From contig NC_015511.1 in assembly GCF_000212735.1 (NCBI RefSeq), positions 1-64,000 of the forward strand: a stretch of 64,000 bases of DNA, in the 5' to 3' direction. The position numbers and the translations under genes are program-made. The stretch comes from Haliscomenobacter hydrossis DSM 1100 (GTDB lineage Bacteria; Bacteroidota; Bacteroidia; Chitinophagales; Saprospiraceae). The notes beneath the pieces are model-generated. The model made no database searches, was not told the DNA's origin, and saw only the letters and a list, made by a program, of their open reading frames with translations. Of this stretch, positions 31,301-46,970 are shown piece by piece. Position 1 is the stretch's first letter; every line of letters begins with the position of its first letter.

Positions 31301-31514
31301 ACCAGGTATGCAGCATAAGCTGGTCATCCACACTGTTCGCCAGGATGGGCGTGAGCACCAAAGGCAATTGCTCGCGAGCGATGCCCGCGGCATTGATTCG
31401 ATCCAATAACGTAAACAAACGCAAGTGCTGGTCGACAGAAAGGGTATGGCCTTTGTCGGCAAATCGGGTCAGCACCTGGCCGACAATAGAATAGATTTGC
31501 GTGCGATCCAGCAT
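25368..31514 (-). CDS. Giant protein with four FGE-sulfatase domains, MoxR-associated
   Basis: A 2048-residue protein. Residues 1-80 are helical; 90-135 are a Pro/Glu-rich linker with nonamer repeats (EEEKKTPTA). A central region includes a possible vWA-like domain (SYLLLIDQRTQNDHRARIFN, about 215-330), then unclassified helical and beta regions to about 900. Four FGE-sulfatase (C-type-lectin fold) domains start at about 910, 1196, 1517 and 1803 (MVLVKGGTFEMG; YRLPTEAEWEFAARGG; DMSGNVWEWCWDW; LRGGSW ... GFRLAR), joined by near-identical 60-residue linkers (NDPSSLERYIRDNPQSSFVE). Such domains can act as binding scaffolds rather than enzymes. The gene follows MoxR (5-bp gap) and CHAT genes, matching the three-part MoxR/protease/scaffold conflict systems known in Bacteroidota. 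Variable cores in each domain suggest target diversification. Confidence 0.88.
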   Translation of the reverse strand: MLDRTQIYSIVGQVLTRFADKGHTLSVDQHLRLFTLLDRINAAGIAREQLPLVLTPILANSVDDQLMLHTWFKEAILWDVQDDHHRIEPAPKEKEFFPPPEEEKKTPTAEEEKKTPTAEEEKTPAQSQEKPLTPNQPPIQRNETFVAELQSFDKPPYVWNVELGAERDFTSTEDLRQLVNRMHDRQLLEAQELDIPRTVVALTTHPGQVQLFFRQLTQAPSYLLLIDQRTQNDHRARIFNLLYEYLKFNEVDVKRFYFSADPKLCFNDDFPYGIPLAQLYALNRSARLLILTYGYELFSPSSNAWSPWTRVFLQWQDRAILSPLPTQNWGAMEQKLAERFTLLPATPLGLAAAIEEFKAEEAKHWEDYLAQITDAVTEPIYYQGDLIETLHRYFPDPVVQRWIAACALYPTLHWELTLHLGALLQSKYGHSSLTSIENLLELARLPWFIEGRIPDVARDELIQWLEVLGEEASIRNLLLESLNRAPAPPPDSVAYADYRMQLVFNQWMLEQDAELKARLEEEFNQYLRAGKSADFVTFKRLERGAKRTELVVPESWRSSIVIEPPSVGESSKTNPAITPIQPRKINPPLAIYLSGDQDGVDLARQYAIEATGKTTLDWAPNLTIEWLRLVNDEHQADYVLHAEEGVWYTRLPFDKRPLLLPIKFREGNSIFAHRANNVFEGFKQMAKWHYFKNLDAFSTDSTPSPFDQDWPIEIRIFEELDKGSETRIYPVNGQFLLEFTKDKPTKDLRFELENRSPEWVYISLLYLDYCFGIATDPIWDKPRALEPGAIVSLNQKNAGNFFDFILDRYIKEYCWPGEQNYLKLIISKTPFDAQAFDMDSLPLPNEAHNSPRVFQDLTRQVSDWNSRTYGLFSNNPYFDAEQARALASGERTIQPFDADNDTDLTIPDHMVLVKGGTFEMGEENNTHSVTLSDFYIGKHQLTFAEYDAFCRATGRELTKDRGWGRGTRPVINVSWFDAIDYCNWRSQEEGLQQVYQVNKEQVTPNWSANGYRLPTEAEWEFAARGGSESQGFTYAGSNNVDEVAWFSENSGAKTQPVGQKKANELGIYDMSGNVWEWCWDWYSAYSSSATKDPKGPDTGSIRVLRCGSWFYDADGCRVAFRSDNDPNVANSNCGFRIARPALHLEKQKELELETWNKIPKNDPSSLERYIRDNPQSPFVEEAQRLIGAIQEVQDSMVLVKGGTFEMGDVMGDKEYENETVHTVTVSNFFLAKNELTFEEYDAFCTATGRELPDDSGWGRGKRPVINVDWYDAIEYCNWRSSQEGLQTVYSINKNTKDSNNSSPSDTKQWQVTTSRSANGYRLPTEAEWEYAARQGGQKVRFGNGKDIADPQEINFNALSGYKKRYSVVGEYRQKTLPVGSFSPNTLDLFDMSGNVWEWCGDWYGPYPSSASNDPQGATGGSDRVFRGGSWRSNPIFTRVALRYRISPGDRSGNKGFRLARAAVAPEKQRELELETWNKIPKNDSSSLERYIRDNPQSSFVEEAQRLIAIIQEVEDSMVLVKGGAHEMREGKNTHRVTLSDFYISSHQLTFEEYDAFCKLTGRELTKDAGWGRGTRPVINVNWFDAIDYCNWRSQQENLKPVYNGGKDGFTADWSANGYRLPTEAEWEYAAKGGLSSRGFKYAGSNNVDEVAWYGSNSGNKTQPVGQKKANELGLFDMSGNVQEWCWDWYEAYSNRAFNDPRGPDFGMYRVLRSGSWFNSSDYCRVAHRDRNVPRRAGDDYGFRLARSVISQENQKVLELEAWNIVPKNDPSSLERYIRDNPQSSFVEEAQRLIAIIQEKQDSMVLVKGGTFQMGEVKKNSHQVTLSDFLIAKRQLTFDEFDAFCKATSRELPSDRNWGRGDRPAINVNWFDAVDYCNWRSQEEGLQQVYHVNMEQVTPNWSANGYRLPTEAEWEYAARGGSESQGFTYAGSRKVLEVAWFSENSGGSTHLVGQKKTNELGLFDMSGNVWEWCWDWHAAYPNSFINDPRGPSAGSRRVLRGGSWLNEAELCHVATRLNYNPLYADNRFGFRLARSVVSPEKQEEPELET
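25434..25505 (-). other. Variable core of FGE domain 4
   Basis: Exactly 24 codons between the Trp of GGSW and the Gly of GFRLAR. Residues LNEAELCHVATRLNYNPLYA and onward; 18 of the 24 codons end in a pyrimidine. Flanking codons are conserved with the other domains while most residues here differ. Confidence 0.6.
26295..26366 (-). other. Variable core of FGE domain 3
   Basis: Exactly 24 codons between the Trp of SGSW and the Gly of GFRLAR. Residues FNSSDYCRVAHRDRNVPRRA and onward; 21 of 24 codons end in C or T, as expected if codons derive from AAY positions of a retroelement template. Confidence 0.6.
27153..27224 (-). other. Variable core of FGE domain 2
   Basis: Exactly 24 codons between the Trp of GGSW and the Gly of GFRLAR. 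Residues RSNPIFTRVALRYRISPGDR and onward; 18 of 24 codons end in C or T. Only RVA, R and P positions are shared with the other cores. Confidence 0.6.
28116..28187 (-). other. Variable core of FGE domain 1
   Basis: Exactly 24 codons between the Trp of CGSW and the Gly of GFRIAR. Residues FYDADGCRVAFRSDNDPNVA and onward; 21 of 24 codons end in C or T, including several AAC and GAC codons. Confidence 0.6.
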
Positions 31515-31519
31515 CCTGA

Positions 31520-32440
31520 TTATTTGTCCAGCAGTTGATACAAAGCCTGGAGGTCTTCCTGGGTTTTGGCCAACACCGAGTAGCTCTTTTTGAGCAAGTC
31601 CTTTTGAGCAGGCTTCAGTTTATTAATATCCTTCAAGGCCTGCGGGTCAAATTTCATTTTTGCCAATAAATCTGCCCAAAGCAGTAGTTCGGAAGTCGCG
31701 GGCTTTTTGCGCAAGCGCGATTCATCTTTGCGCAGTCCATCAAAATGATCTACCAAAGGTTGGAGCGCATCTTTGGGGAAGCCTGTGAGTTTTTTGCCCA
31801 GGATGTCCAGCAACTCCAGTTTGGTTGGAAACTGAATATGGTAATACACCACCCGGCGCAGAAAAGGGTCGGGCAGGTTTTTTTCGGAATTGGAAGTGAC
31901 AATGACAATCGGCGTATTGGCCGGATCACTTTTAAAGTGTCCCTTGATTTCAGGCACCTCAAAAGCCATGCGGTCGAGCGCGGTCAGGATGTCATTGGGG
32001 AGATCGCGGGGTGCTTTATCGATCTCGTCGATCAGCACAACCGTTCTTTGGGCTGATCGAATGGCCTGGCCAATACCTTGATAGGAAATGAAGCGGTCTT
32101 CCAGTTCCGCGGGCCCAAGTAAATCCTTGCTGTGCTGGTTGTGTTGAAAATGCCCCAACGCATCGTAGCGGTAATACAAGTCTTTGGCCACGCTGGTCGT
32201 TTGAACCGGTACCACAGCAGGTTTACCCAGTTTAAAATACCAGGCGATGTGATCCGCCAGTTGCGACTTGCCCGTACCTGGTTCGCCCGTCAGCAGGAGT
32301 GGTTGACCCAGCGTTAAAGCAACATCGACGGCAGCGCGCAGTCCGGGGCTGGCGACGTAGAGCTCGGGGTCGTTGAGTTTCTCATTGAGTTGCAGCGCGG
32401 GGAGAGGAGTATCTGGTTTGTTGTCGGAGTACCAATTCAT
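31520..32440 (-). CDS. MoxR-family AAA+ ATPase
   Basis: A 306-residue AAA+ ATPase of the MoxR type. Walker A is GEPGTGKS (52-59), Walker B VVLIDEID (134-141), with a sensor-like Asn in PIVIVTSNSEKNLPD and an arginine-finger region DPFLRRVVYYHIQFP. MoxR proteins remodel protein complexes and normally work with vWA-like partners. Here it sits between the CHAT protease gene (2-bp gap) and the 2048-residue FGE protein (5-bp gap), so the three are surely one operon. In the three-part conflict systems of this type the ATPase is thought to couple sensing to effector activation. That role is family knowledge plus context. Confidence 0.93.
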   Translation of the reverse strand: MNWYSDNKPDTPLPALQLNEKLNDPELYVASPGLRAAVDVALTLGQPLLLTGEPGTGKSQLADHIAWYFKLGKPAVVPVQTTSVAKDLYYRYDALGHFQHNQHSKDLLGPAELEDRFISYQGIGQAIRSAQRTVVLIDEIDKAPRDLPNDILTALDRMAFEVPEIKGHFKSDPANTPIVIVTSNSEKNLPDPFLRRVVYYHIQFPTKLELLDILGKKLTGFPKDALQPLVDHFDGLRKDESRLRKKPATSELLLWADLLAKMKFDPQALKDINKLKPAQKDLLKKSYSVLAKTQEDLQALYQLLDK

Positions 32441-32442
32441 GG

Positions 32443-34089
32443 TCAGATTGTTTTTTGGATTTGGCGGCCCTGGTTCCAGAGTTCTTGCATAAAGGTACTG
32501 GCATCGGCCATGTCCAGTCGATCATCGGGCGCAAAACCTGAGCGCACCTCGTTTTTTTTGCACCAAATTTCAAATAAAGTTCGGCGCTTTCCCCCTTCAA
32601 GCAATTTATCGAGCCAGGTTTGCACATCCCTAACCTCGACCTGGGGCAATTGGTCAATGACCAGGGTATCTTCAGCATGCAGCGTAGCTAGTTCCTGGAT
32701 GCAATTCACCAGCCCCATTTCTGTCAAAGAAAGACTGTTTTTGCAATGGATGGAGTCTATGTTGAGGATAAAGAAAAAAAGACATTGAGGCCCCGCACTG
32801 GCTTTAGTAGAAAAACACTGTAGCCAGTTTTTCAGAAGGAGTTCAAATCGGTCCAATGGCCAATCACCCGCAAAAAACTCGTACCCAGCAGCCAGGTAAT
32901 CGTGCTTTAGTTGAGGAAGCTCCACTTCCAGGAATGCAGAGAAGTCTTGACTGCTCTTTTGTACCTGAGCCAACCAGTCGCGTTGGAGCCATTCAACTTT
33001 ACGCCCAGCTTCAACAATCTGTATGGCCATCCGGCGTGCGCCATCAAATTCCTGGATGCGTTTGTACTGAATTGATCTTCTTGCTGTATCCTGATCAAAT
33101 TGATCCAGAATGTCAAAAATATACCGTTGCACCAGACTACGTGGATGTTGGCTGGGGCAAGACAAGATGAAATAAAACTGATGCCCGGGGGATTTTTCCC
33201 GGTGGTCTTGCATGTCGAGGAGCTGATGCGTGCGGTCGCAGTTGACGAGGTAAAGTTCCGAAGGAGGGCTTTGTTTGTAGCTGAGTTTGGCCAAGGTGTC
33301 CAAAAACTCATCAGTATGTTGCGGTACAAGCGGTGCGGGTGCAAGGCCATAGTTGTTGATGACGCTTACCGTAGAGTTGTGCAGGTTTTGAAAGGCATTG
33401 ATCCCTGAGCCAGCAATATCCTGGGTATTGGTAGTGACTGAAAGTTCTGCCGCAATTTCCTGCAGTTTCCAGTCCAGCACCTCATCATTGGTCACATACA
33501 ATCGCCAAGACAGCTCCGGTAGCGGTTGATTTCGCAAACGTACCCCCCGCAAATTCACAATCTCCTCGCCTGCGGGTCCCACCTGGGTCAGTTTCATGGC
33601 CCCGGTGGCCAATTGAAAGGCTTCTTTGAGGGTATGCCCGGCAACGAGCCCGGTATAAAAAGTCTCAGCAAATTGTTTTGCCTGGCCATCGGCCACTGGG
33701 CAAGTAGTGGCAATGACCGCAGGGATTCCAAGGTCCAGGTATTGTGCCGCCTGCGCCTGGGTATTGCAGCCGTTGAGAAACACGAGTTTCAACTCAGGAT
33801 GCAAGGCAAGAAGTTGAGCAAGTCCTAGTACATGGCCACCTGCGTCGTCGAAGTACAGTTGACTCCCATCAGCGTGGCCACCAAAGTGGAAGATGAGGAG
33901 TTCATCTTTGAACTGAGTGAGCATACCGACCAGTTGTCTGGTTTTGGCACTCGGTAAATCCAGGTGTTGCAAATAGGGGAGGGGGGCGAGAATCTGCTGC
34001 AAGCGGTCGCGCTCTTGAACCAGTTCAGCGAGGTAATCCGCTTCAAGGGAGTTGGCAAAAGCAGTGAGGACTACCGGGCGTTCGGGCAT
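32443..34089 (-). CDS. CHAT-domain protease with inactive-STAND-like region
   Basis: A 548-residue protein when started at MPERPVVLTAFAN (34089); a longer start at 34146 adds 19 residues unlike the family. Residues 1-190 form a CHAT (caspase-like) protease: His72 in LLIFHFGGHADG and Cys108 in LVFLNGCNTQA. A short bridging segment (LHNSTVSVINNYG) leads to a region of about 290 residues that looks like a STAND NTPase without a Walker A motif (LYLVNCDRTHQLLDMQDH, FYFILSCPSQHPRSLVQRYI), a form described as inactive STAND. It is the first gene of the CHAT-MoxR-FGE operon and is the probable executioner. Its substrate is unknown; the neighbouring proteins are candidates. Confidence 0.9.
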   Translation of the reverse strand: MPERPVVLTAFANSLEADYLAELVQERDRLQQILAPLPYLQHLDLPSAKTRQLVGMLTQFKDELLIFHFGGHADGSQLYFDDAGGHVLGLAQLLALHPELKLVFLNGCNTQAQAAQYLDLGIPAVIATTCPVADGQAKQFAETFYTGLVAGHTLKEAFQLATGAMKLTQVGPAGEEIVNLRGVRLRNQPLPELSWRLYVTNDEVLDWKLQEIAAELSVTTNTQDIAGSGINAFQNLHNSTVSVINNYGLAPAPLVPQHTDEFLDTLAKLSYKQSPPSELYLVNCDRTHQLLDMQDHREKSPGHQFYFILSCPSQHPRSLVQRYIFDILDQFDQDTARRSIQYKRIQEFDGARRMAIQIVEAGRKVEWLQRDWLAQVQKSSQDFSAFLEVELPQLKHDYLAAGYEFFAGDWPLDRFELLLKNWLQCFSTKASAGPQCLFFFILNIDSIHCKNSLSLTEMGLVNCIQELATLHAEDTLVIDQLPQVEVRDVQTWLDKLLEGGKRRTLFEIWCKKNEVRSGFAPDDRLDMADASTFMQELWNQGRQIQKTI

Positions 34090-34410
34090 GGTGCTTGGGT
34101 TGTTTGCTTGGATGGTAAATATGGGAAAAATTTGGGAGGTGTACAAATTGCTTTTTGAAAATCCGATAAGCTCCCAGATTTTTGGTTTCAGGAATCATGA
34201 TCGTTTGAAAAATAAATAGGTTGATTGTTATAAAACTGCAATCTACTTGCTAAATTTACCAATATGGCATGTCGCATCGCATTACTTAGGTATGTGGATT
34301 TAAGCGTTTTGGGGAGTATGCGAGCAGCTATAGGCTATAGATATAAAATTAGGTGTCGCTTTGGTTTAGTCATAGTAGCACAGTGTTCAGTCAAATAACA
34401 TCCGATATAA

Positions 34411-35837: not shown

Positions 35838-35870
35838 ATGACCTATCTCCTCGCCGATTGTAACAATTTC
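35838..35870 (+). CDS. umuC: umuC exon 1 (first 11 codons)
   Basis: Reads MTYLLADCNNF, the normal N-terminus of UmuC-type Y-family polymerases, and stops exactly where a GUGCG group II intron 5' end begins. The second exon resumes in frame with [12 protein letters not shown]. Splicing therefore restores an uninterrupted 420-residue UmuC. Confidence 0.9.
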
Positions 35871-36472
35871 GTGCGACATGCAAAGTCGCTTACTGTACTG
35901 TTTTGCAGGGGCAGCCCTGACAAAACCAGTCGTTCCACCGACTGTACCTTAGGAAGAAATGCGAGGAGGTAACGAATCGTATAAAGCCTTCTGACAATGT
36001 ACCGAAATCCACCGAAGCCGTGAGGTAGAAGTGGTTCTGTTAGCATCCAACGGAATAGGGCTAAGGTGAGTGGTATGGCTAACCTAGGTGAACTTCTGAT
36101 AAACGCCGTTATTGCAGAAAGAGCCAAAGATGCTGATAGGCTTTAACCAAAATGGTAATGTGGCTGGAATTGGAGCTGAATGTTTCTCCAATCGTGGACA
36201 ACAACGCCACCGGTGAAAAGGAAGAGCCTAACCCATTCTTTTGTACAGTTAAGCGAAACATGGTAAACCCGTAGCATTCCTCTGTAAGGAGGTAGGGAAG
36301 TTGTAAGATTGTCCCAAAGATGCTGCGGGCAAAGGATGGTGGAGAAAGCGAAAGCCTTCTTGTAATGAGAGGGATAGAGGTTGAAACATGATCTCACGCG
36401 AAAGCGGGCAGACTTCCACCTGGTCTCTAATCACGAAAAAACTTGGCAAAAATGTTGAAGGAGACAAAGCAG

Positions 36473-38182
36473 ATGACAGATGAAATTCCTATTTCTAATG
36501 GTGCAGTTTCCTACGAAGCAGCGGGCTGGTATGCTATTGACTGGCAAAAAGCCCACCAGAACGTAAAACGACTCCAAGCGCGTATCGTGAAGGCAACACA
36601 GGAAAATAGATGGGGTAAAGTTAAGGCATTACAACATTTGTTAACCCGCTCTTACAGTGCCAAAGCATTGGCAGTCAAAAGAGTGACTGAAAACACAGGA
36701 AAACGTACTAGCGGGGTGGACAAGCAATTGTGGGACACCCCTAATCGCAAAGTAACCGCTATCCAAGAACTCCGACAAAGAGGTTACCAATCTGCGCCAC
36801 TACGCAGAATCTACATTCCGAAGAGCAATGGAAAGCAACGTCCGCTGAGCATTCCAACCATGAAAGACAGAGCAATGCAAGCGCTGTACTTAATGGCGCT
36901 GGAACCAGTGGCGGAAACAAACGCTGATCCAAATTCTTATGGTTTTCGGAAGGAACGTGCGACCATTGACGCGGTAGAAAGTTGTTTTAAATACCTTAGT
37001 CAACGTTACGCTCCACAGTGGATTCTGGAAGGAGATATAAAATCCTGCTTTGACAAAATCAGCCATGAATGGTTGCTGCAACATATCCCTATGGAAAAGT
37101 CCATTTTGCGGAAATGGTTAAAGGCCGGGTTTATGGAAAAAGGGATGCTGTTTCCAACTCAAGAGGGCACTCCCCAAGGCGGCATCATATCTCCTGTATT
37201 GGCAAATATGGCCCTAGATGGATTAGAAAAGGCGCTCAAAGGGCATTTTACCAAAAACAGAGGTATTTGCCCTAAGGTCTATGTAGTCCGATATGCCGAT
37301 GACTTCATTGTCACAGGTGTTTCCAGGGAATTATTAGAGCAGCATGTCAAACCTTTTATCGAAGCTTTCTTGAAAGAACGAGGACTGGAGTTATCACAGG
37401 AAAAAACGAAACTTACCTCTATTCAGGAAGGGTTTGATTTCTTAGGAAGAAATTTCCGTAAATACAACGGAAAACTTATTATTAAGCCTTCCAAAAAGAA
37501 CTTCCAATCCTTTTTAGATAAAGTAAAAAAGGTTATTAAGCACAACAAAGCAGTTTCTAGTGCCGACCTCATTGCTTATCTAAATCCCAAAATAAGGGGG
37601 TGGTCAGTTTTTCATCAACACACCTGTAGCTCTAAAACCTTTCGAACGGTAGATGCTCAAATATTTTGGGCTATCTGGAAATGGGCTTTACGCAGGCATC
37701 CAAGGAAAGGCAAGCGATGGATTAAAGCAAAATATTTTCGTCCTTATGCTAATCGCCAATGGGTGTTCACTGGACAGGCCACAAAGCGGGATGGCAGGAT
37801 AATTTATCCACGAATCTATTTTGCCAGCGATGTGAAGATTAAACGGCACATCAAAATCCGAGGAGCAGCCAATCCCTTCGATCTCACGTGGGAAGTCTAT
37901 TTTGAGAAAAGGATTGCAGATAAAATGCGAAAAGCCCTGCAAGGACGTAAACAGTTAATTTATCTGTGGAACGAACAAAAAGGGATATGTCCTATCTGCC
38001 AACAGCGAATTACAACCGAAACCGGATGGCATAACCACCACATTGTATGGAGAGTACACGGCGGGAAAGATACTTCTGACAACCGTATTCTCTTACATCC
38101 AGATTGCCACCGCAAAGTACATCAGCTTGGATTAACAGTCGTGAAGTCGCGTCGCTCCCAAAGCGGCGTTATAGAGGCTTGA
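36473..38182 (+). CDS. ltrA: Group II intron reverse transcriptase-maturase with HNH
   Basis: An intron-encoded protein of 569 residues from the ATG at 36473, which has a good ribosome site (aaggaga) at 36458-36464; an in-frame ATG at 36443 would add 10 residues. Reverse-transcriptase blocks are clear: [46 protein letters not shown] and the catalytic YADD in [12 protein letters not shown] maturase (X) region follows, and a C-terminal HNH endonuclease with two Cys pairs ([29 protein letters not shown]). It acts in intron splicing and retrohoming. The stop codon overlaps the start of domain V. The GTPQGG motif marks it as a group II, not a DGR, enzyme. Confidence 0.95.
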
Positions 38183-38214
38183 GCCGTATGAGGGGAAACT
38201 CTCACGTACGGTTC
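38181..38214 (+). ncRNA. Group II intron domain V
   Basis: Thirty-four nucleotides gagccgtatgagg-ggaaa-ctctcacgtacggttc fold into the catalytic domain V hairpin with a GGAAAC cap. The branch-point domain VI (38217-38255) follows at once. Confidence 0.9.
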
Positions 38215-38255
38215 TTAGAGGGGTGGAGCGTGGCAACACGCTCTACCTACTCGAC

Positions 38256-39485
38256 TACGCCAGCTGTGAGCGGGTCTTCAACCCCAAGCTCCGGGGGCGG
38301 CCCATTGTGGTGCTCTCCAACAACGACGGTTGTGTGGTAGCGCGCAGCAATGAAGCCAAGGCGCTGGGCATCCCGATGGGGGAACCCTTTTTCAAGATCA
38401 GGGCCTTGGTCAAAGCGCAGCAGGTGGAGGTTTTTTCCAGCAATTACACCCTGTACGCCGATATGTCGGCGCGGGTGATGAGCATCCTGCAAGCCCACTG
38501 CGCGGAAACCGAAGTGTACTCCATCGATGAAGCCTTTCTCCAGCCCAATCGCTACGGCGCCAAGGTAGCAGATAACCTGGACTTTGCCCTTGGGCTGCGC
38601 GAAACCGTGCTACAATGCACTGGCATTCCCATTTCCGTGGGGCTAGCCGACACCAAAACCTTGGCCAAGTTGGCCAATCACCTGGCGAAAAAACGCAGTC
38701 CCAATGGCACCTACCACCTGGAAGCCAGCAGCCCGGAACTTGCGGAACTCGGCATCGAGGAGCTTTGGGGCGTGGGGGCCGCCTACCAGCGGCGACTGGC
38801 CGCAGTGCGCGTCAAAACTGTAGCCGACCTGGCCCGGGTATCTGAGGGTTGGATGCAAAAGGAATTTGGGGTGGTGGGATTGCGGCTGCTCAAGGAAGTG
38901 CGGGGTGAGGCTTGTTACGGGCTGGAGGCTCCAGTGGAAAGTCGGAAGTCGATGATTGTATCCCGATCCTTTGCGCAGGATGTGTTGGAGTTGCCAGTGC
39001 TGAGCGAGGCGGTGGCGAGGTATGCTACGCGCTTGGGGGAAAAGTTGCGGCGCTATGGGCAACAGACAGAGACGATCACGGTCTTTGTATGGGCCAATCG
39101 TTTCAAGCCGCAGGAGAATATGCCCTTGCAGTGTAGTGCCTTGAGTGTGGAGTTGCCGCTGGCGAGTAGCAATACCAATGAGTTGATTCACTGGGCTGGG
39201 CTACTGGTGCGCAAGTTGTACCAGGCGGGGGTGCGGTACAAAAAGGCGGGAATCATGGCCACGGCGCTACGGCCGCAGACTAGTGTCCAAATGAATTTGT
39301 TTGTGGATGAAGGGGCGTCGCTGCGCTCGGCGCAGTTGATGCAAGCGCTGGACGGGATCAACCGGAAAATGGGGCGCAATACGGTGTATTTCGCGGCTTG
39401 CGGGAATAGGCCGGAGTGGGGGCCGAAGGCGGAGAGACGGTCGGGGAGGTTTACGACACGGTGGGGGGAGTTGATGAGGGTGTGA
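38256..39485 (+). CDS. umuC: umuC exon 2, Y-family DNA polymerase
   Basis: Residues 12-420 of UmuC, the catalytic subunit of the error-prone polymerase acting with UmuD in the SOS response. Visible motifs: [40 protein letters not shown], and the catalytic acidic pair in VYSIDEAFL; helix-hairpin-helix regions ([20 protein letters not shown]) and the little-finger domain follow. The length with exon 1 is the usual one. The open frame reaches upstream into intron DNA (an ATG at 38223), but the true start is exon 1 at 35838. Function depends on intron splicing. Confidence 0.93.
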
Positions 39486-39502: not shown

Positions 39503-42500
39503 CTAAACCTCAGCCCCAAATAATGACTCCCGCATAAAAAAAGCCAATGAAGACCCTTTTTCAACCATCAAGTCCAGTATAGCCATTAAACTCTTTAATA
39601 GGTCAGGTTTTTTCCTAATACTGGGCGCATGAAAAACCCAAACGCGATTTAATAAACGTTCCATGTCGTGGATTTTGACCTGCTCTATACCTCGCTTTTG
39701 GAGTATCTCATACAGCCATACCAGACCATCTGGTAATAAAATATCCGAGCCAATACCTGCCAATAAGCGAACAACTGAGTTGGGCGCATGCTCACCCATC
39801 TTTTGCATGATCTCAATGAAGAGAGCTTTGTTGTCGCGAATGGGTTGCCAATCGGTGACATAATCATGCAAATAGGGAGATTCTAATAAAAGTTTGGCGC
39901 TAAAGTATTTATTATTGGCAGCTATTGATGCATTAAGTAGGTGTTTCCAATAAAAACCAAAGATTTGAGTGCTCAGGTTATTATTCTGAGCCATAGCCCT
40001 TATAATTTCCTCTACACTTCTTTGAACAAATTTAAAAATGGATTGGTCATCAGGTTTGGCCTGCAATATAGTGTGAAGGAGCTGGTCAAAAAGTGGTAAT
40101 GCCACATCTTTGCTCTGAACAAAAATGAATTTTGCAAAATACTCGGCAAAAAATTGGCGAGATGTATCAAATTCAGTAAGACTGTCCCAATCAGATTCAT
40201 CATGTACATGAGTTTTCAGCAGCAGATTGAGATGGTTTCCAACAAATTTTCTACACTCATCATTTTGAGTATGGACGGGTAAAATTTTAAGGGCTTTGTC
40301 GTACCACCAGTGGCTTCTTTTATCTAAAACATCTGGCAGCTTTTGCAATGAAATGGTTTGATCCAGCACACTTTGAATTAACTTCGCTTTTTCTTGTTCG
40401 AACTTTTTGGCCTCTTTCTTTGAGGCAGGAAACAAAGGTGCATCATAACTATATCTGGGGTACTTTCTCCAAAGGGAGGCATAATTAATCAACCCTACCC
40501 AATAAGTATAAGCAATGTCTGGGGCTATAGTCCATAAGTTGTCTCGAACATAATCAAAGAGCTTATTTTTCAGATTATCAGACAATTCTATAAAAAGCAA
40601 AGCCTCAAAAAGTAAAACTATTACATCCGGACGCAGTTTGGAATTGTGTTGCTTTCTCAATAAAAGTACTAAACTTAAAAGAGACGGAACATCTCCAAAA
40701 AGACTTTTTACGATACTTAAATCAGGATACATCTGACGAGCAGAATCTACCTCTATTTTAGCCCTGGCCAGTAGACTATTTTCGCACCAGTCAAGTTGTT
40801 CTGCATTCAATTCATCTAATCCATCACGAATTGCAATAGCAGCAAGCAAAGCCGGAGAAAAGAAAAATCCTTCTACTCTTTCAAACTTTAAATGTTCAAT
40901 ACTTCGAATATGATTATAATGTGCTGCCCAATTTTCAAAAGTAAAATGAACACCATTTTCATAATCAAATACTTTTTGTGCCCAAACGCACCCAGCAGCA
41001 ATAGCGTCGTTTTCTTTTTGTTGTTTTCGTGCTTCTTCAACCATAGGAAGAAGATCATCTTCTATTTTGGGTTGTAGCTCTATAATGTATTTCCCATCAG
41101 ATTCTTCAATGTTGGTACGCTCCCATTTCCTAGTATCCATACGATTTAAATAAATACGCCATACTGCCTGACTCACTAGCGTGTCTGCCCAAAGTTGATC
41201 AAGTATTTCGAAAAACTTGCCCTGAAACGCTAAATCTTTAAAAGATCGATTAATAACATATTCTTCCAATCTAATTTTACGATGAGGCATCTGCTTAGCT
41301 TCCCACCTTTCTTTTGAGTAGTGCCAGCCATATTCTACTCCTCCTATTGGATTTAAGGCTGACTGTTCCTGATTCTGTCGATCCATATCCCAATCAAAAA
41401 TTGCAAGATTGGTAAGTAAGGGGTAAATCTCCTCTCCTACTTCCTCTGAGTGCGCAATAGCAACACTTACCAAAACAGAGGTAGTTGCGACTGTTTTGCT
41501 TTCTTCCAATAGTTTTCTAAAAGATAGACGAAGCAATTTTCGGCTTGACTCTTCTTTACATTCTGCTAATTCAAAAAGCCATTTTTCTAGTGCCATCAGA
41601 ATAGACTGTAACAAATAAGGGGTTACTCGACGAGTACCTCTAAACATCTGATAAAGAGTGGAGTTTCCAAATTGTTTTATTTTTGTTCCATCATTTAGTC
41701 TAAGTTCTATTTCCAGTATATCATCATTTTTGTCATTTTTTGAAAATTCAGACTCCAGATATTTTTGTGTACAATAGTTCATTAAATCAATGATCCAATC
41801 AAGAGCTTTCTTGGGATGGAATCTAAGTAACCACAGCGTTGGAGTTTGCCAAGCACTCGCAGGGAAATCATCCAACTCGTTTTTCAGCCCAAAATCGCGG
41901 TTGACATCTCTCCTTGGCCGATGTTCTGATTTTTTGTCCTTAATCCAGCGTAGCTTAGCCGTTTCAATAATTAAGTCTGGGAAATATCGACATAACTCGC
42001 TACAATGAAAAGAGAAAAGCATTTGCTTCCATATTAACTCAAAATCTCCTTGCAGCCTTTGGCTTTTCCCTTTTGCAGATTTAATTTCATTAAGTGTTTC
42101 TTCCAATATCGTTTTAACCTCAAATTCAAGCACTTCAGTCAATCGAAAGACCAAACGCAGTATCTCCTCTTGAATCTCATTTTGGGGATCCCATAAACCT
42201 TCCCTATGACTGTTTCTCATCCGCTGAAATACAGTTAAAAGAATCAATCCAGCATCACGAGCCTCTGAAGGAAAGGGGTTATTCCACTCTAATTTGTTGC
42301 TCCAATCTTTGACAAATAGGTACAAGCCATCATTGTTTTTGATTTCACTCAAGTGCTGATGCAAAAAATGCATTAAAGTAGACCACCCATTTCCAACAGG
42401 AATAAAACTAGAGCTATATAATTTCCAGGTATCCTTTAAATCCGTAGGCGCCGCATCTGGCTCTTTGCTGGCTACTCTGAACAGGTGAACAAAACGCAGC

Positions 42501-44476
42501 AACAAGCGGGCATCGTTGGCCAGCAACAGCGTTTTGTTTTCGTTTAAAAAACGCTCTCCTTCCTCTGATTGCACCATAACCGTGAAGGTTTCATCCTTCC
42601 AGTATTGAGCAATCGTACCATCCGCAATACAATGTGTGGCAAAGCGCACTACCTCGCTGGGATCATGCTGTACTTCTTCCTGTAACCAAAAACGGAACCC
42701 TCGGCGAATGGCATATGCTGAGCCTAGATGCTGAAACAAGTCAGCAGGTAAACCATGATCTTGAAAAGTAGAGCGAACATGTCTAACTAGAGCCCAATCT
42801 TCAAAAATATCGTGAGCTGGAGCAAAACGATTAGTATCCTTTTCCCGAACCAGGATATGTTCACTCTCCAATTGTTCTACTACTTCAAAATCCGCTTTAT
42901 CCACCCTGACGTACAATGCCATTTCGGTTGCGCGTTTTACTACGAGGTCGGTAAAAACTAATGTGCGGTCTAAATTTCTGGTTCTTCCTGCTATAGCCAA
43001 ACGCCAAATCTCTTCCCTGAAAGTAAATTCATCCAGTTCTTTGCCCGCTTCGGTTAACTCATTCAGCAGCACTGCATAGTTGAGGTAAAAGGGTACCCTG
43101 AGTAAACGGCGTAACTTTGGATTGTCTAAAAAAGATCGGGCTGCTGGAAACTGTTGCCCGATCAGCTTTTGTTCTTCGAGTGAAAGTAAGGGGACTTCAT
43201 AAACATGAAAGCGGCGGGTAGTATTCAGCACCAATAATCTGAAATGCTCCAGCGCATATTTACGGATGGTAATGACAATTCTCAAGGAAGAGAATTCAGC
43301 TGTTAGCCGAATCAAGTCAATCAATGCAGCAGTTTGATTGCGCTCGATGCTTTTTTCAGCACCATCTACCCAAATCACCACTGGCTCTTTGAGTAAGGGG
43401 CTTGTCAACAAGGTTTTCAGATCAACATCCGTCCCAGTGATTGATTTGAGGGTTGTGTGTAAACTCTCTGCACAAATCTGTTCACCTTTGATGGCAAAAA
43501 ACCGCTGCTTTCCATCTACAAGACAATTTTTAACTGCCGCAGATTTCCCGGCACCAGCCTCTCCATGTACGATCACTACCGGGTTTATTCCGATAGTTTT
43601 TGTCAAATCGTTGATTAGTTGCTCTCTAGGCAGGTAATGTTTTCCACCAATCGTCGACTTAACGCGATCGAGTACCTCTGTTTTAGAATTGGTATCCAGT
43701 TTTTTGATTGCTGTTTTTACTTCTGGTCGCACTTCAGGTTCACAAAAAACAAGGGGAAGTAGCTGCTCTTTACCATTGATTAAGCTTTCCAAAAAGTTTA
43801 TTTTTTCCCCTAAGAATCGATTGAAAGGGCCAAATTTTGACACTATTCCCAGGAGGTGAACTTCCTCATCGTTGACTAAAAAAACACCACTACCTGAAAA
43901 ACCCCGTACATTTTCATAAGCGGTTCTGGAAGCATTGGAAATCCAGCGATCAGCAAGAGATTGAGAAACTTCCCATTCAAACTGATGAAGCGAACCCTTC
44001 GTGCCCTCAGTTATAGTTCCTTCCATTCGAATAGGCTCTTCCGTTTCGTAAGCCTCTGGAAACCCTCTGAAAAGGCAATTGGTCAGGCCATGGGTTTCTC
44101 GAGCTAAAGTCAGGATGGGCAATGCTCCTGTAAGCTGTTCAATAGCTGCTGAAGGCACCACCAGGGCGGCAAAATCTTCTGGGGGGTTATCAGAGACCAG
44201 AATCAAGTCACTAGCTTGCAGTTGATACTCAAAATAGCTATTCGTATTCGGATTTAATAGAAATTTCAGGGCAACTTGATCAGGCGAAACATCTTCAGGC
44301 AGTCCATTTTCTCCCAATAACACATGGCGAGCAGTTAATACGAAAACAAAAGGAGATGTCGGGGAAGGTTTGTACAAAGTACCACTGCCCACTTCAAGAG
44401 GTGAAGTTACTTTGACCGTAGTTTTACGCAGCAATCCGTTTATCTCAATGTGTTCAAAAAATCTAGGCATCAGCAT
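39503..44476 (-). CDS. Trypsin-like protease-STAND NTPase (AVAST type I-like)
   Basis: A 1657-residue defence protein. Residues about 15-235 are a trypsin-like serine protease with His51 (LTARHVLL), Asp101 (EDFAALVV) and Ser196 (GFSGSGVF). A STAND NTPase follows with Walker A GEAGAGKS (304-311) and Walker-B-like VVIWVDGAEKS. The remaining 1100 residues are mostly helical, as in the C-terminal sensor of Avs proteins, which bind phage proteins directly. It overlaps the upstream metallo-beta-lactamase-fold gene by 14 bp; that pair is the hallmark of AVAST type I as I know it. The protease is the likely killing effector. A start at 44470 is also possible. The gene is convergent with umuC, 17 bp apart. 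Confidence 0.88.
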   Translation of the reverse strand: MLMPRFFEHIEINGLLRKTTVKVTSPLEVGSGTLYKPSPTSPFVFVLTARHVLLGENGLPEDVSPDQVALKFLLNPNTNSYFEYQLQASDLILVSDNPPEDFAALVVPSAAIEQLTGALPILTLARETHGLTNCLFRGFPEAYETEEPIRMEGTITEGTKGSLHQFEWEVSQSLADRWISNASRTAYENVRGFSGSGVFLVNDEEVHLLGIVSKFGPFNRFLGEKINFLESLINGKEQLLPLVFCEPEVRPEVKTAIKKLDTNSKTEVLDRVKSTIGGKHYLPREQLINDLTKTIGINPVVIVHGEAGAGKSAAVKNCLVDGKQRFFAIKGEQICAESLHTTLKSITGTDVDLKTLLTSPLLKEPVVIWVDGAEKSIERNQTAALIDLIRLTAEFSSLRIVITIRKYALEHFRLLVLNTTRRFHVYEVPLLSLEEQKLIGQQFPAARSFLDNPKLRRLLRVPFYLNYAVLLNELTEAGKELDEFTFREEIWRLAIAGRTRNLDRTLVFTDLVVKRATEMALYVRVDKADFEVVEQLESEHILVREKDTNRFAPAHDIFEDWALVRHVRSTFQDHGLPADLFQHLGSAYAIRRGFRFWLQEEVQHDPSEVVRFATHCIADGTIAQYWKDETFTVMVQSEEGERFLNENKTLLLANDARLLLRFVHLFRVASKEPDAAPTDLKDTWKLYSSSFIPVGNGWSTLMHFLHQHLSEIKNNDGLYLFVKDWSNKLEWNNPFPSEARDAGLILLTVFQRMRNSHREGLWDPQNEIQEEILRLVFRLTEVLEFEVKTILEETLNEIKSAKGKSQRLQGDFELIWKQMLFSFHCSELCRYFPDLIIETAKLRWIKDKKSEHRPRRDVNRDFGLKNELDDFPASAWQTPTLWLLRFHPKKALDWIIDLMNYCTQKYLESEFSKNDKNDDILEIELRLNDGTKIKQFGNSTLYQMFRGTRRVTPYLLQSILMALEKWLFELAECKEESSRKLLRLSFRKLLEESKTVATTSVLVSVAIAHSEEVGEEIYPLLTNLAIFDWDMDRQNQEQSALNPIGGVEYGWHYSKERWEAKQMPHRKIRLEEYVINRSFKDLAFQGKFFEILDQLWADTLVSQAVWRIYLNRMDTRKWERTNIEESDGKYIIELQPKIEDDLLPMVEEARKQQKENDAIAAGCVWAQKVFDYENGVHFTFENWAAHYNHIRSIEHLKFERVEGFFFSPALLAAIAIRDGLDELNAEQLDWCENSLLARAKIEVDSARQMYPDLSIVKSLFGDVPSLLSLVLLLRKQHNSKLRPDVIVLLFEALLFIELSDNLKNKLFDYVRDNLWTIAPDIAYTYWVGLINYASLWRKYPRYSYDAPLFPASKKEAKKFEQEKAKLIQSVLDQTISLQKLPDVLDKRSHWWYDKALKILPVHTQNDECRKFVGNHLNLLLKTHVHDESDWDSLTEFDTSRQFFAEYFAKFIFVQSKDVALPLFDQLLHTILQAKPDDQSIFKFVQRSVEEIIRAMAQNNNLSTQIFGFYWKHLLNASIAANNKYFSAKLLLESPYLHDYVTDWQPIRDNKALFIEIMQKMGEHAPNSVVRLLAGIGSDILLPDGLVWLYEILQKRGIEQVKIHDMERLLNRVWVFHAPSIRKKPDLLKSLMAILDLMVEKGSSLAFFMRESLFGAEV

Positions 44477-45506
44477 GAATGATTAAAGCATTACTCTCGG
44501 GATCAGGAAAATGGACTGAAAAATTCAAACGCTCAAAAACATCCTGACCGTCAACATCAAATATACGGTCTAATTTATTATTGCGATGGTTGAAAAACAA
44601 TTTGATGTGCCTGGTGAAGTCCCTTTGTGGATGGCAAAGAATGTGTGCAATGGTCTCTTTATCGGGCAATTTAAGTCGCGTTGATGCATCGGCAGTAAAA
44701 ACATACTGATCGGTCTCGATCAGGGCCAGTAATGCGTCTGAAATATTCCGTTTGCTCCCATGGTGGGGAACCTTGATCCAATCAACTTGTAATGGGCGTT
44801 GGGGTGAATAACCCAATTTTTGAAGTTGCTCGACCAGGTCAAGCGGGCTTGCATCCGCCAGGAGTAGCATCCGATAAGTTCCGGCTTCGAGCAAAAAAGC
44901 AATGCTGTTGCGATTTGCCAGGCTACGGTCAAGGTGTGAAGGTAGATGGAGCAGTGCCTCAAGCCTTTGCTGATGATCCCATTCCTTAGCTCCTAAAGGG
45001 AAACGCGTCTGCATTTTGGAAATGGCCTCTCGATAAATTTCAGGAGGAGGAGATAGAATAGTGAATTTCAAGCCTAATTCATCAATGATCGGGTTTTCGG
45101 TGGTGATGATCGGAGCAGGTATACCCAACTCATCCTGTAGCATATCACGCAGTAAGGCCCCCTCTTTCAAACCTGTCCAGCCTGAAGTCGACCCTGAGTT
45201 GCGGGGCATTCGATAATTGGCATTGAACCAAACCTGTTTGATAGGCAAGCGAGACCGAATGTCGTTATCCTGCAAAACCTTGATGATTCCGCAGATGTGG
45301 TCATTATCCCAATGAGAAATGACCCACAGTCCAATTTCTTCAGCTCGATCCGCGATGGCCAATAACTCTGGGTGAAGCAGGTCATAAGCAGCTTCCGTAC
45401 CACTGTCAATAAAGATGTGCTGTGATTTTCCTGTGATGTCCTTAAAACTTATGGAAATCACATCAGCGCATCCAGCTGAAAAAAACTTACATGTGAAGTG
45501 GAGCAT
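44463..45506 (-). CDS. Metallo-beta-lactamase-fold hydrolase (AVAST type I-like)
   Basis: A 347-residue metallo-hydrolase, ComEC-like in sequence. The metal motif is SHWDNDHICG (His65, Asp67, Asp69, His70), with later ligands in LLLADAS and VPHHGSKRN. There is no signal peptide, so it acts in the cytoplasm. It lies 2 bp after the SLATT gene and overlaps the protease-STAND gene, so all four genes of this group are one operon. In AVAST type I, such a hydrolase accompanies the STAND protein; its substrate is unknown. A role in degrading a signal nucleotide from the neighbouring CD-NTase is an attractive but untested alternative. Confidence 0.88.
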   Translation of the reverse strand: MLHFTCKFFSAGCADVISISFKDITGKSQHIFIDSGTEAAYDLLHPELLAIADRAEEIGLWVISHWDNDHICGIIKVLQDNDIRSRLPIKQVWFNANYRMPRNSGSTSGWTGLKEGALLRDMLQDELGIPAPIITTENPIIDELGLKFTILSPPPEIYREAISKMQTRFPLGAKEWDHQQRLEALLHLPSHLDRSLANRNSIAFLLEAGTYRMLLLADASPLDLVEQLQKLGYSPQRPLQVDWIKVPHHGSKRNISDALLALIETDQYVFTADASTRLKLPDKETIAHILCHPQRDFTRHIKLFFNHRNNKLDRIFDVDGQDVFERLNFSVHFPDPESNALIIHADA

Positions 45507-45508
45507 AG

Positions 45509-46096
45509 CTAAGATTCATTTGATGATTGCCCTACAGTTCCCCGTTTCAATTCTGCTGGTAAAAAACGATCAATTTCCTCATCTGACAAAGTCAATTCTT
45601 CATTGACTTTGAGTGCCTTACTAGCTTTTTGGTAGGCCTTGTTCCGGGTGCGCGGGGAACCTTTGTAACAATTACCAAGTTGCCCTAATAATAAATCTCT
45701 TTGTGCTCGAATTTCGTCAAGATCAAGCGTACCCATTTTCAAATCCACCAAAAGCGAGAAGTATTTTTCGCGCACAAGCCATAAATCACTAGCCGCATCG
45801 GCATGCTTTTTAGCGATTTCGCCAAAGTCATGCCCCTTTACAAACAGGTTGATGGCGAACAACGAAGCGGAAAGCAAAGCGCTGATTATGGTTACCCATT
45901 GCAATTTTCCAAACACATTAATGAGCAAACTTGTAGTAGTTACCCCAGATAAAATGACTTGCCATAGTTTAATCGCGTTGTGCTTTGCAAACATAATGTC
46001 TGCGCATTTCTCGTGGGTTTTGTGTGTCCAGACTACGCGGGCGAAGCAATCGCGCAGTTGACCTTCAAGAACCTTAAGCTGGGAATTTGTTTCCAT
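45509..46096 (-). CDS. SLATT-domain two-helix membrane effector
   Basis: A 195-residue protein when started at METNSQLKVLEGQ (46096); the open frame extends upstream to 46297, but that part is a shadow of the nucleotidyltransferase gene. The N-terminal helix is followed by two transmembrane segments (LWQVILSGVTTTSLLINVFG and TIISALLSASLFAINLFV) and a charged helical C-terminus, the layout of SLATT proteins. These are predicted pore-forming effectors activated by nucleotide signals. The gene overlaps the CD-NTase gene by 23 bp, matching CBASS operons in which a membrane protein kills the cell on cyclic-oligonucleotide binding. Confidence 0.85.
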   Translation of the reverse strand: METNSQLKVLEGQLRDCFARVVWTHKTHEKCADIMFAKHNAIKLWQVILSGVTTTSLLINVFGKLQWVTIISALLSASLFAINLFVKGHDFGEIAKKHADAASDLWLVREKYFSLLVDLKMGTLDLDEIRAQRDLLLGQLGNCYKGSPRTRNKAYQKASKALKVNEELTLSDEEIDRFLPAELKRGTVGQSSNES

Positions 46097-46970
46097 AGAT
46101 TTGTCTCCATTTGGTGTGAGCAATGCGAAATTTCTCCTTTTCAATCGCCTCCAGGGCCAGGTTATAACAGCGTTTGGCTTTGTGTTCAAATAGACCAGTA
46201 CGTTCAACGTGTTGGCGACTGCCCAGTGCCAGCCAATAACTTTGCTCCTGGTTTTGTTCGGATAAGAACTTAAAAAAGTCACGACAAGCATGGTCATAAC
46301 GGACTTTAGCGCCAGATTTAGGTTTCCACTGGTTCAAGAAGTTATACACCAAAGTATCGATGAGCAAGCCACTGATGGGAACATTCCATTCTTGTTTCCA
46401 GGCCCTGGTCATGCGGCATAAGTTTTTCATCAAGCCGTTGGTTTTCTTATCCATTGCATTTACGGCTTCAATTTCTGGGCGAGGATCGGTCTTGTGCCAC
46501 GAACCGCCTTGGTTGGTATCTGGGTAAATGAAACTTTTATCCGCCTGTTCGAAACAAGGAACAATCTCAAAGCGCACTTTGTCATTGAAGGGTGCTACCA
46601 CCACTTGCCCATCTGCCCGCAAAGAGGTACTGGTATACGTACGCTTTATAGACTTTTTAAGATCTTGTAATAGGCCCGATGCACCATTGGTGATCCGATC
46701 TTGGTAGCGTGCTAGCCTGGCTTTAGGCAGCCAAAACAACACATCGATGTCACTGACCAAAATATCTGTGTCGCGGCCATAAGACCCTACGTAGAGGCAG
46801 TGAGCAACAGGTTCAGGTTGACCCCAAAAGTCTTTGTTGAGCTGTTTGACAATGCGTTGGTAGCGTTGTTGGATTTTCTTGATGGTGGCGGCGGGGAGAG
46901 TGATGTTCTGGCAGAATTGGTGGAATGCTGTCTCGACGGTGGTGGTTTTATTTACAGTGCTGTTCTTCAT
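46074..46970 (-). CDS. CD-NTase (SMODS nucleotidyltransferase, CBASS)
   Basis: A 298-residue cGAS/DncV-like nucleotidyltransferase. The polymerase-beta motif is GSYGRDTD with catalytic Asp74 and Asp76 in VSDIDVLFWLP, and a third acidic residue, Glu135 instead of Asp, in VRFEIVPCFEQ. The C-terminal helical domain (MTRAWKQEWNVPISGLLIDTLV) is typical of SMODS proteins. It would make a cyclic or linear oligonucleotide on phage infection and signal to the SLATT effector encoded next. It is the first gene of the four-gene operon; its promoter should lie in 46971-47165. No Cap2/Cap3 ancillary genes are present, so the core is a minimal (type I-like) CBASS. Confidence 0.9.
   Translation of the reverse strand: MKNSTVNKTTTVETAFHQFCQNITLPAATIKKIQQRYQRIVKQLNKDFWGQPEPVAHCLYVGSYGRDTDILVSDIDVLFWLPKARLARYQDRITNGASGLLQDLKKSIKRTYTSTSLRADGQVVVAPFNDKVRFEIVPCFEQADKSFIYPDTNQGGSWHKTDPRPEIEAVNAMDKKTNGLMKNLCRMTRAWKQEWNVPISGLLIDTLVYNFLNQWKPKSGAKVRYDHACRDFFKFLSEQNQEQSYWLALGSRQHVERTGLFEHKAKRCYNLALEAIEKEKFRIAHTKWRQIYGNKFPA

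What the first reader, a model, noticed from the sequence alone, without database searches (positions are those of the whole stretch)
39503..46970. CBASS module fused in one operon with an AVAST type I-like module
Four genes run CD-NTase, SLATT membrane protein, metallo-hydrolase, protease-STAND on one strand, with overlap or gaps of -23, +2 and -14 bp, so they are co-transcribed. The first two form a minimal CBASS; the last two match AVAST type I. Each is known separately; a tight four-gene fusion could be a single system in which the STAND sensor is tuned by a nucleotide signal, or in which the hydrolase removes the signal. The CD-NTase third acidic residue is Glu rather than Asp.
Basis: partly seen in the sequence, partly recalled or inferred. 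Interest (0 to 1): 0.85.

Follow-up and report, generated by a model that had tools for sequence, protein, structure and literature searches.

The report
Two antiphage modules sharing an operon
Four tightly packed bacterial genes turn out to be two ready-made phage-defence modules, a two-gene CBASS and a sensor with a protease-activated nuclease, set end to end; each half is found elsewhere without the other, so they look like co-transcribed neighbours rather than one new machine.

Summary
In detail: four minus-strand ORFs (46970-46074, 46096-45509, 45506-44463, 44476-39503), junctions -23, +2, -14 bp. Genes 1-2 are a minimal type I-like CBASS (SMODS CD-NTase, SLATT_4 effector). Genes 3-4 are not AVAST type I: the sensor is Avs4-type (PDB 8dgf, E 3.5e-71) with an N-terminal trypsin-fold protease, and the hydrolase is a ComEC-like MBL with two low-confidence loops, matching the published pro-nuclease that a partner protease activates (PMC12799240). 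The four-gene order was seen nowhere else in the samples searched: 0 of 80 MBL relatives have this CD-NTase or SLATT_4 nearby, 0 of 11 opened CD-NTase relatives have MBL/STAND. MBL + protease-Avs4 occurs without CBASS in two other genomes; 9 of 11 CD-NTase relatives adjoin SLATT_4, 7 with the exact 23-nt overlap. The Glu is normal (9 of 11). Only the SLATT-MBL junction is new; there SLATT has an extra tail. Best reading: two independent abortive modules on one transcript, one hitting the membrane, one DNA. Signal removal by the hydrolase is unlikely; cross-talk is untested and lacks genomic support. A new combination of known parts.

The parts
46074..46970 (-). CD-NTase (SMODS; 298 aa; G62-S63, D74, D76, E135)
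   Evidence: Pfam SMODS E 3.2e-41; PADLOC Cyclase PDLC00786 E 1.3e-122, residues 11-297; PDB nucleotidyltransferases 6p82, 6p8u, 6p8j; residues checked
45509..46096 (-). SLATT_4 CBASS effector, two-TM family (195 aa, start METNSQ, overlaps CD-NTase by 23 nt)
   Evidence: Pfam SLATT_4 E 3.2e-70; PADLOC 2TM effector E 2.1e-76; start supported by 7 relatives with the same overlap
45507..45508 (-). SLATT-MBL junction (2 bp), not seen in any other locus examined; window SLATT carries 10 residues after LPAELKR, where the 8 aligned relatives carry 1-4
44463..45506 (-). ComEC-like MBL, predicted gated pro-nuclease (347 aa; H65, D69, H70, D218, H248, H249; low-confidence loops about 101-110 and 161-180)
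   Evidence: PADLOC LmuA E 2.1e-65; those residues invariant in 44 aligned MBLs; AlphaFold2 mean pLDDT 92.8; Foldseek top hit ComEC MBL domain 9ic4 E 1.2e-13
39503..44476 (-). Trypsin-fold protease fused to Avs4-type STAND sensor (1657 aa)
   Evidence: PDB 8dgf Avs4, residues 284-1652, E 3.5e-71; PADLOC Avs4 E 5.5e-157
43697..44476 (-). Protease domain, about residues 1-260; triad H51, D101, S194
   Evidence: invariant in 22 of 22 aligned sequences; 16, 17 and 16 of 17, where one row had been mis-trimmed; AlphaFold2 mean pLDDT 83.1; Foldseek list is trypsin-fold proteins, best E 4.6e-9
43541..43564 (-). Walker A of the STAND NTPase, residues 305-312, GEAGAGKS
   Evidence: G305, A307, G308, G310, K311, S312 invariant in 3 of 3 protease-Avs4 proteins

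Best explanation
Two independent abortive antiphage modules are probably transcribed together from upstream of 46970. Module 1 is a minimal type I-like CBASS: infection switches on the CD-NTase, its (unidentified) cyclic nucleotide activates the SLATT_4 membrane protein, and the membrane is compromised. Module 2 is an Avs: the Avs4-type STAND/sensor part binds a phage protein (most likely portal), oligomerises, and so activates its N-terminal trypsin-like protease, which cuts the gating loop or loops of the MBL pro-nuclease; the nuclease then degrades DNA. The modules came together by juxtaposition at the SLATT-MBL junction and share expression, not signals. Shown here: gene layout, domain identities, intact catalytic residues, the two-loop architecture, the existence of each half without the other. 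Inferred from relatives: all activities, triggers and products. Inferred only from layout and comparison: co-transcription and independence.
For: Domain calls; ComEC-like fold with two low-pLDDT loops; trypsin fold and triad; published mechanism for MBL + trypsin pairs in Hachiman and AVAST (PMC12799240). Separability: 0 of 80 MBL loci with this CD-NTase or SLATT_4; MBL + protease-Avs4 without CBASS in L011 (Chitinophaga varians) and L107; CD-NTase relatives 0 of 11 with MBL/STAND, 9 of 11 with SLATT_4. Relatives of both cassettes also sit against other defence genes: MBL-Avs4 after HsdS, HsdM and GmrSD genes in L107 and a CD-NTase relative (without SLATT_4 match) after HsdM and HsdS in L112, CD-NTase-SLATT between an N-6 methylase gene and a helicase gene in Microcystis.
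Against: The +2 gap is tight, and neither the strict nor the loose Bacteroidota-type promoter pattern (recalled) matched between SLATT and MBL, so the Avs half may depend on the CBASS promoter, a dependence that could be selected. The surveys are samples and capped lists. The published Ile cut sites could not be placed in this MBL. No expression or phage data.
Confidence: 0.8

Rival explanations
1. One integrated system: the CD-NTase product or the SLATT protein tunes the Avs sensor, or the Avs protease cuts CD-NTase or SLATT, so the four genes form one circuit.
For: Tight same-strand packing with a +2 junction and a C-terminal tail on SLATT at the junction that 8 aligned relatives lack.
Against: Order not found elsewhere; each half occurs without the other; the family scans of the STAND protein listed no ligand-binding domain for a cyclic nucleotide.
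Confidence: 0.07
2. The MBL hydrolase degrades the CBASS cyclic nucleotide as an off-switch.
For: Some MBL-fold enzymes cut nucleotide signals (recalled: phage anti-Pycsar Apyc1; of PMC9117128 only the title and start of abstract were seen); MBL structures bound to GMP or AMP (3md7, 3qh8) appear lower in the fold list.
Against: The best fold match is the ComEC MBL domain; this CD-NTase was near none of 80 MBL relatives (other CD-NTase clades were not searched for); a protease profile hit was in 49 of the 80 loci.
Confidence: 0.04
3. Selected layered back-up: independent modules kept in one operon because phages that block CBASS signalling are caught by the Avs half and vice versa. This is compatible with the best explanation and adds selection for the pairing.
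For: Two different effectors (membrane, DNA) and two different inputs on one probable transcript; relatives of both cassettes lie against other defence genes.
Against: Seen once only, so selection for this pairing cannot be inferred.
Confidence: 0.2

Closest known systems
Type I CBASS with CD-NTase and SLATT/2TM effector
   Same: SMODS CD-NTase plus adjacent SLATT_4 effector, no ancillary genes; exact 23-nt overlap as in 7 relatives
   Different: Followed at +2 bp by an Avs module
Gated MBL nuclease-protease pairs (PMC12799240: in AVAST, Hachiman, Lamassu, DRT)
   Same: [quoted passage not shown] two loop insertions; ComEC-like fold
   Different: Sensor is Avs4-type; 'Avs4' does not occur in that paper's main text (supplements not read). 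The Ile cut sites reported there could not be placed; position 185 in loop 2 is Leu
Avs4 (AVAST type 4; PDB 8dgf)
   Same: STAND NTPase and C-terminal sensor, residues 284-1652, E 3.5e-71
   Different: NCBIfam calls Avs4 a nuclease and matches here only from profile position 159 on, at 582.5 bits against a cut-off of 1500; here the N-terminus is a protease beside a separate MBL gene
AVAST type 1 (Avs1a, Avs1b, Avs1c; gene plan recalled)
   Same: MBL then protease-STAND gene order
   Different: MBL below the Avs1a cut-off, no Avs1b match listed, no third gene downstream

Membership tests
Type I CBASS | CD-NTase with GS and DxD...(D/E) nucleotidyltransferase motif | tested here: met
   SMODS E 3.2e-41; G62-S63, D74, D76, E135; Glu in 9 of 11 aligned, window included
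Type I CBASS | Adjacent effector gene (SLATT/2TM) | tested here: met
   SLATT_4 E 3.2e-70, 23-nt overlap
Type I CBASS | No Cap2/Cap3, HORMA or TRIP13 ancillary genes | tested here: met
   No other ORF of 100 aa or more lies between 39503 and 46970; the flanking genes scanned are unrelated or without match
Type I CBASS | Makes a cyclic oligonucleotide that activates the effector and protects from phage | not testable with these tools
   needs biochemistry and phage challenge
AVAST type 1 (Avs1) | MBL reaches the Avs1a equivalog cut-off | tested here: not met
   152.5 bits against 420
AVAST type 1 (Avs1) | STAND protein is Avs1b | tested here: not met
   No Avs1b model among the families listed at E up to 0.1; best is Avs4
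AVAST type 1 (Avs1) | Third gene avs1c downstream | tested here: not met
   The next gene is a convergent umuC-like gene ending 17 bp away
AVAST type 4 (Avs4) | Avs4 STAND and sensor region | tested here: met
   PDB 8dgf E 3.5e-71 over 284-1652; PADLOC Avs4 E 5.5e-157
AVAST type 4 (Avs4) | Equivalog-level match including the N-terminal nuclease part | tested here: not met
   582.5 bits against 1500, profile 159-1578 only; the N-terminus is a trypsin fold
AVAST type 4 (Avs4) | Triggered by phage portal protein | not testable with these tools
   recalled trait of Avs4; terminase and portal named for Avs1-Avs4 together in PMC12931631 (passages)
[quoted passage not shown]
Gated nuclease-protease pair | ComEC-like MBL with two disordered insertions near the active site | tested here: met
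   mean pLDDT 60 at 101-110 and 68, 75 at 161-180 against 92.8 overall; 9ic4 top hit. Distance of the loops from the active site was not measured
Gated nuclease-protease pair | Conserved isoleucine cut site in each loop | tested here: inconclusive
   In 82 MBLs the best column inside the loops is Ile in 33 of 82 (Met100 in the window); position 185 is Leu 47, Phe 17, Ile 12; the column of Ile134 is Ile in 47 of 82 but lies in a well-ordered part
Gated nuclease-protease pair | Protease cleaves MBL and so switches on a DNase | not testable with these tools
   needs biochemistry

The most novel reading that the evidence does not exclude
A two-input, two-output immune operon in which an Avs4-type sensor and a CBASS cyclase on the same transcript cross-regulate each other, for example with the Avs protease also cutting the CD-NTase or the SLATT tail, so that either trigger can launch both membrane damage and DNA degradation.
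Probability: 0.06. Interest if true: 0.85.

Novelty: new variant of a known kind. Interest (0 to 1): 0.35.

Why it matters
It puts the gated MBL-protease effector on an Avs4-type sensor, extending the sensors known to carry it, and it is a clean natural example of two self-contained defence cassettes packed into one operon. It is a ready test of whether co-transcribed modules merely add up or back each other up. If the halves did cross-talk it would be a new kind of layered bacterial immunity, but the present evidence does not favour that.

Tried and rejected
Four-gene order elsewhere: sought with the CD-NTase, the MBL and the STAND protein in sampled genomes, genome contigs, plasmids, phages and viral contigs; not found in the loci opened. 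Searches found no relative. Of the plasmid records only 4 of 1074 with a CD-NTase match, 1 of 38 with a STAND match and 1 of 55 with an MBL match were opened; the 3 phage records with a CD-NTase match were not opened. One search kept the best 80 of 162 MBL relatives. CD-NTases of other clades were not searched for in those 80 loci.

Rejected: AVAST type I membership; hydrolase as signal eraser; Glu as an oddity. A composition break between the halves: GC 46.3, 42.9, 45.6 and 40.3% for the four genes, all below the neighbouring umuC-like gene (59.1%), so no clean break at the junction. Repeats: none that looks like an insertion scar at the junction or the operon ends. Promoters: the strict Bacteroidota-type pattern (recalled, no shuffled control) hit once, inside the STAND gene; the loose one also at 47270-47237 upstream of the CD-NTase; not relied on. 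Ile cut sites: not resolved; an attempt to place the HamM sites by Ile pairs 100 residues apart in six Pseudomonas MBLs failed. Literature: no title or abstract start listed describes this combination (open-licence PMC only; two searches listed no paper). The original AVAST papers were recalled, not read.

Full report
What is there. The window is the first 64,000 bases of a 164,019-base contig in an 8,771,651-base, four-contig genome. From memory these sizes fit Haliscomenobacter hydrossis DSM 1100 and one of its plasmids (lineage); no call names the genome. Four ORFs lie on the minus strand at 46970-46074, 46096-45509, 45506-44463 and 44476-39503, with junctions of -23, +2 and -14 bp. A 379-bp gap, 70% A+T, lies upstream, and a convergent umuC-like gene ends 17 bp downstream.

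First half. The first ORF is a SMODS CD-NTase (Pfam 3.2e-41; PADLOC Cyclase 1.3e-122; solved chains 6p82, 6p8u, 6p8j, which I recall as CdnD enzymes). The second is a SLATT_4 protein (3.2e-70). Eleven relatives of the CD-NTase were opened: seven sampled genomes, which are all the non-self hits (2 of 395 and 6 of 394 other genomes, one shared), and four plasmids out of 1074 matching records. SLATT_4 is adjacent in 9 of 11, and MBL or STAND is present in 0 of 11 within the DNA held. In 7 of those 9 the overlap is exactly 23 nt, as in the window; the other two, L094 and L111, have a longer CD-NTase frame and no overlap. L112 and L113 had no SLATT_4 match. A GGAG stretch, inside the CD-NTase codons, precedes the SLATT start in 7 of the 8 sequences, window included (not in L110). 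So the CBASS half is an old, self-contained, mobile unit. The third acidic residue is Glu in 9 and Asp in 2 of the 11 sequences aligned, window included.

Second half. The large protein matches solved Avs4 (8dgf) over residues 284-1652 with E 3.5e-71, the only PDB sequence at E up to 0.01, PADLOC Avs4 at 5.5e-157, and NCBIfam Avs4 at 582.5 bits, below its cut-off of 1500. Residues 1-260 form a trypsin-fold domain (AlphaFold2 mean pLDDT 83.1 for residues 1-270; Foldseek list of trypsin-fold proteins, best E 4.6e-9) with H51, D101 and S194 invariant in 22 aligned sequences. The MBL is predicted at mean pLDDT 92.8 with two dips, residues 101-110 (60) and 161-180 (68 and 75). Its best fold match is the ComEC MBL domain 9ic4 (E 1.2e-13, TM 0.58 by query length). 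This is the anatomy described in PMC12799240 (I saw the abstract, parts 1 and 2 of 6 of the text, the figure legends and found passages; [quoted passage not shown] The published cut sites are isoleucines. In the 82 MBLs aligned here (window, 79 of the 80 with L056 lost, L107, L120) no column inside the two loops is mostly Ile: the best is 33 of 82, and position 185 is Leu 47, Phe 17, Ile 12 (Leu in the window). The column of Ile134 is Ile in 47 of 82 but is well ordered in the model. The cut site is unresolved.

Modularity of the second half. In genome contigs 162 MBL relatives were found and the best 80 kept. None of the 80 has this CD-NTase or SLATT_4 by tblastn or by profiles built here from the same clade; 70 of 80 hold at least 3 kb upstream and 59 hold that on both sides. 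A hit to the profile of the protease-STAND protein, mostly to its protease part, occurs in 49 of the 80 loci, against 21 by tblastn. Of these 49, 27 were scanned with PADLOC together with the window, L107 and L120: all 30 hit the LmuA model whose match covers the protease, 24 hit one Avs2 model, 10 hit five further Avs2 models, 5 hit Avs1b weakly (best E 9.2e-9) and 3 hit Avs4; the three are the window, L011 and L107. L011 (Chitinophaga varians) and L107 are thus MBL + protease-Avs4 pairs without CBASS, with overlaps of 4 and 23 bp by longest frames. The STAND searches found relatives in 2 of 394 and 3 of 394 other genomes. In L117, L118, L119 and L121 the sensor matched but not the protease, and L108 matched only from residue 512; none of these five had CD-NTase or SLATT. 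L065 (Tissierellales) has a protease-STAND protein with weak similarity to the window's sensor, no PADLOC Avs4 match, and the MBL downstream.

How the halves met. Relatives of both cassettes lie against other defence genes: the L107 pair follows HsdS, HsdM and GmrSD genes, the CD-NTase relative of L112 follows HsdM and HsdS, and CD-NTase-SLATT of Microcystis lies between an N-6 methylase gene and a helicase gene. The SLATT-MBL junction of the window is the only one of the three not seen elsewhere, and there SLATT runs ten residues past LPAELKR where the 8 aligned relatives run one to four. This would fit a recombination that brought the MBL start to 2 bp from a new SLATT stop; that event is inferred.

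Mechanism and limits. I conclude that two abortive modules probably share a transcript: a cyclase-triggered membrane effector, and an Avs4-type sensor whose protease frees a DNase. Avs1-Avs4 are reported to sense terminase or portal among others (PMC12931631, passages); that Avs4 senses portal in particular is recalled. All activities are inferred from relatives. Sharing of signals is not excluded but has no genomic support; removal of the signal by the MBL is unlikely. No title or abstract start in the paper searches describes this combination, but the library holds only open-licence papers and the supplements were not read. The surveys were samples, so they show rarity, not absence.

Noticed in passing
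window 35838-39485 (+): A group II intron (Rfam D1-D4-7 at 35926-36061, gpII at 38179-38255; RT-maturase-HNH ORF 36443-38182) sits near the 5' end of the umuC-like gene, downstream of an S24-peptidase (umuD-like) gene.
   Followed up: partly
window 25368-34146 (-): Tight three-gene set: CHAT peptidase (34146-32443), AAA_5 (MoxR-like) ATPase (32440-31520) and a 2048-aa FGE-sulfatase protein with four matched stretches (31514-25368); perhaps another conflict system. PADLOC gave only weak ATPase hits, to the AAA gene.
   Followed up: no
L030:9992-14006 (Spirosoma profusum): MBL gene, then a protease domain fused to an Argonaute-associated (Aga, PNTD) region, then a gene matching PADLOC pAgo_I over its full length: the nuclease-protease pair apparently taken up by a short-Argonaute system, a context not among the four named in the main text of PMC12799240. 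Pfam gave no match to the two proteins (one paper search).
   Followed up: partly
L093, L095-L098, L109, L110 and window 46074-46096: A 23-nt CD-NTase/SLATT overlap is exactly conserved in 8 of 8 sequences tested, from Bacteroidota to Cyanobacteria and Bacillota, with a GGAG stretch in the CD-NTase codons in 7 of 8; two other relatives, L094 and L111, lack the overlap.
   Followed up: partly
L013, L014, L019-L022, L024, L028: In these loci the protease-STAND gene precedes the MBL gene, the reverse of the order in the window; they are probably Avs2-type (one search gives counts, not rows).
   Followed up: no
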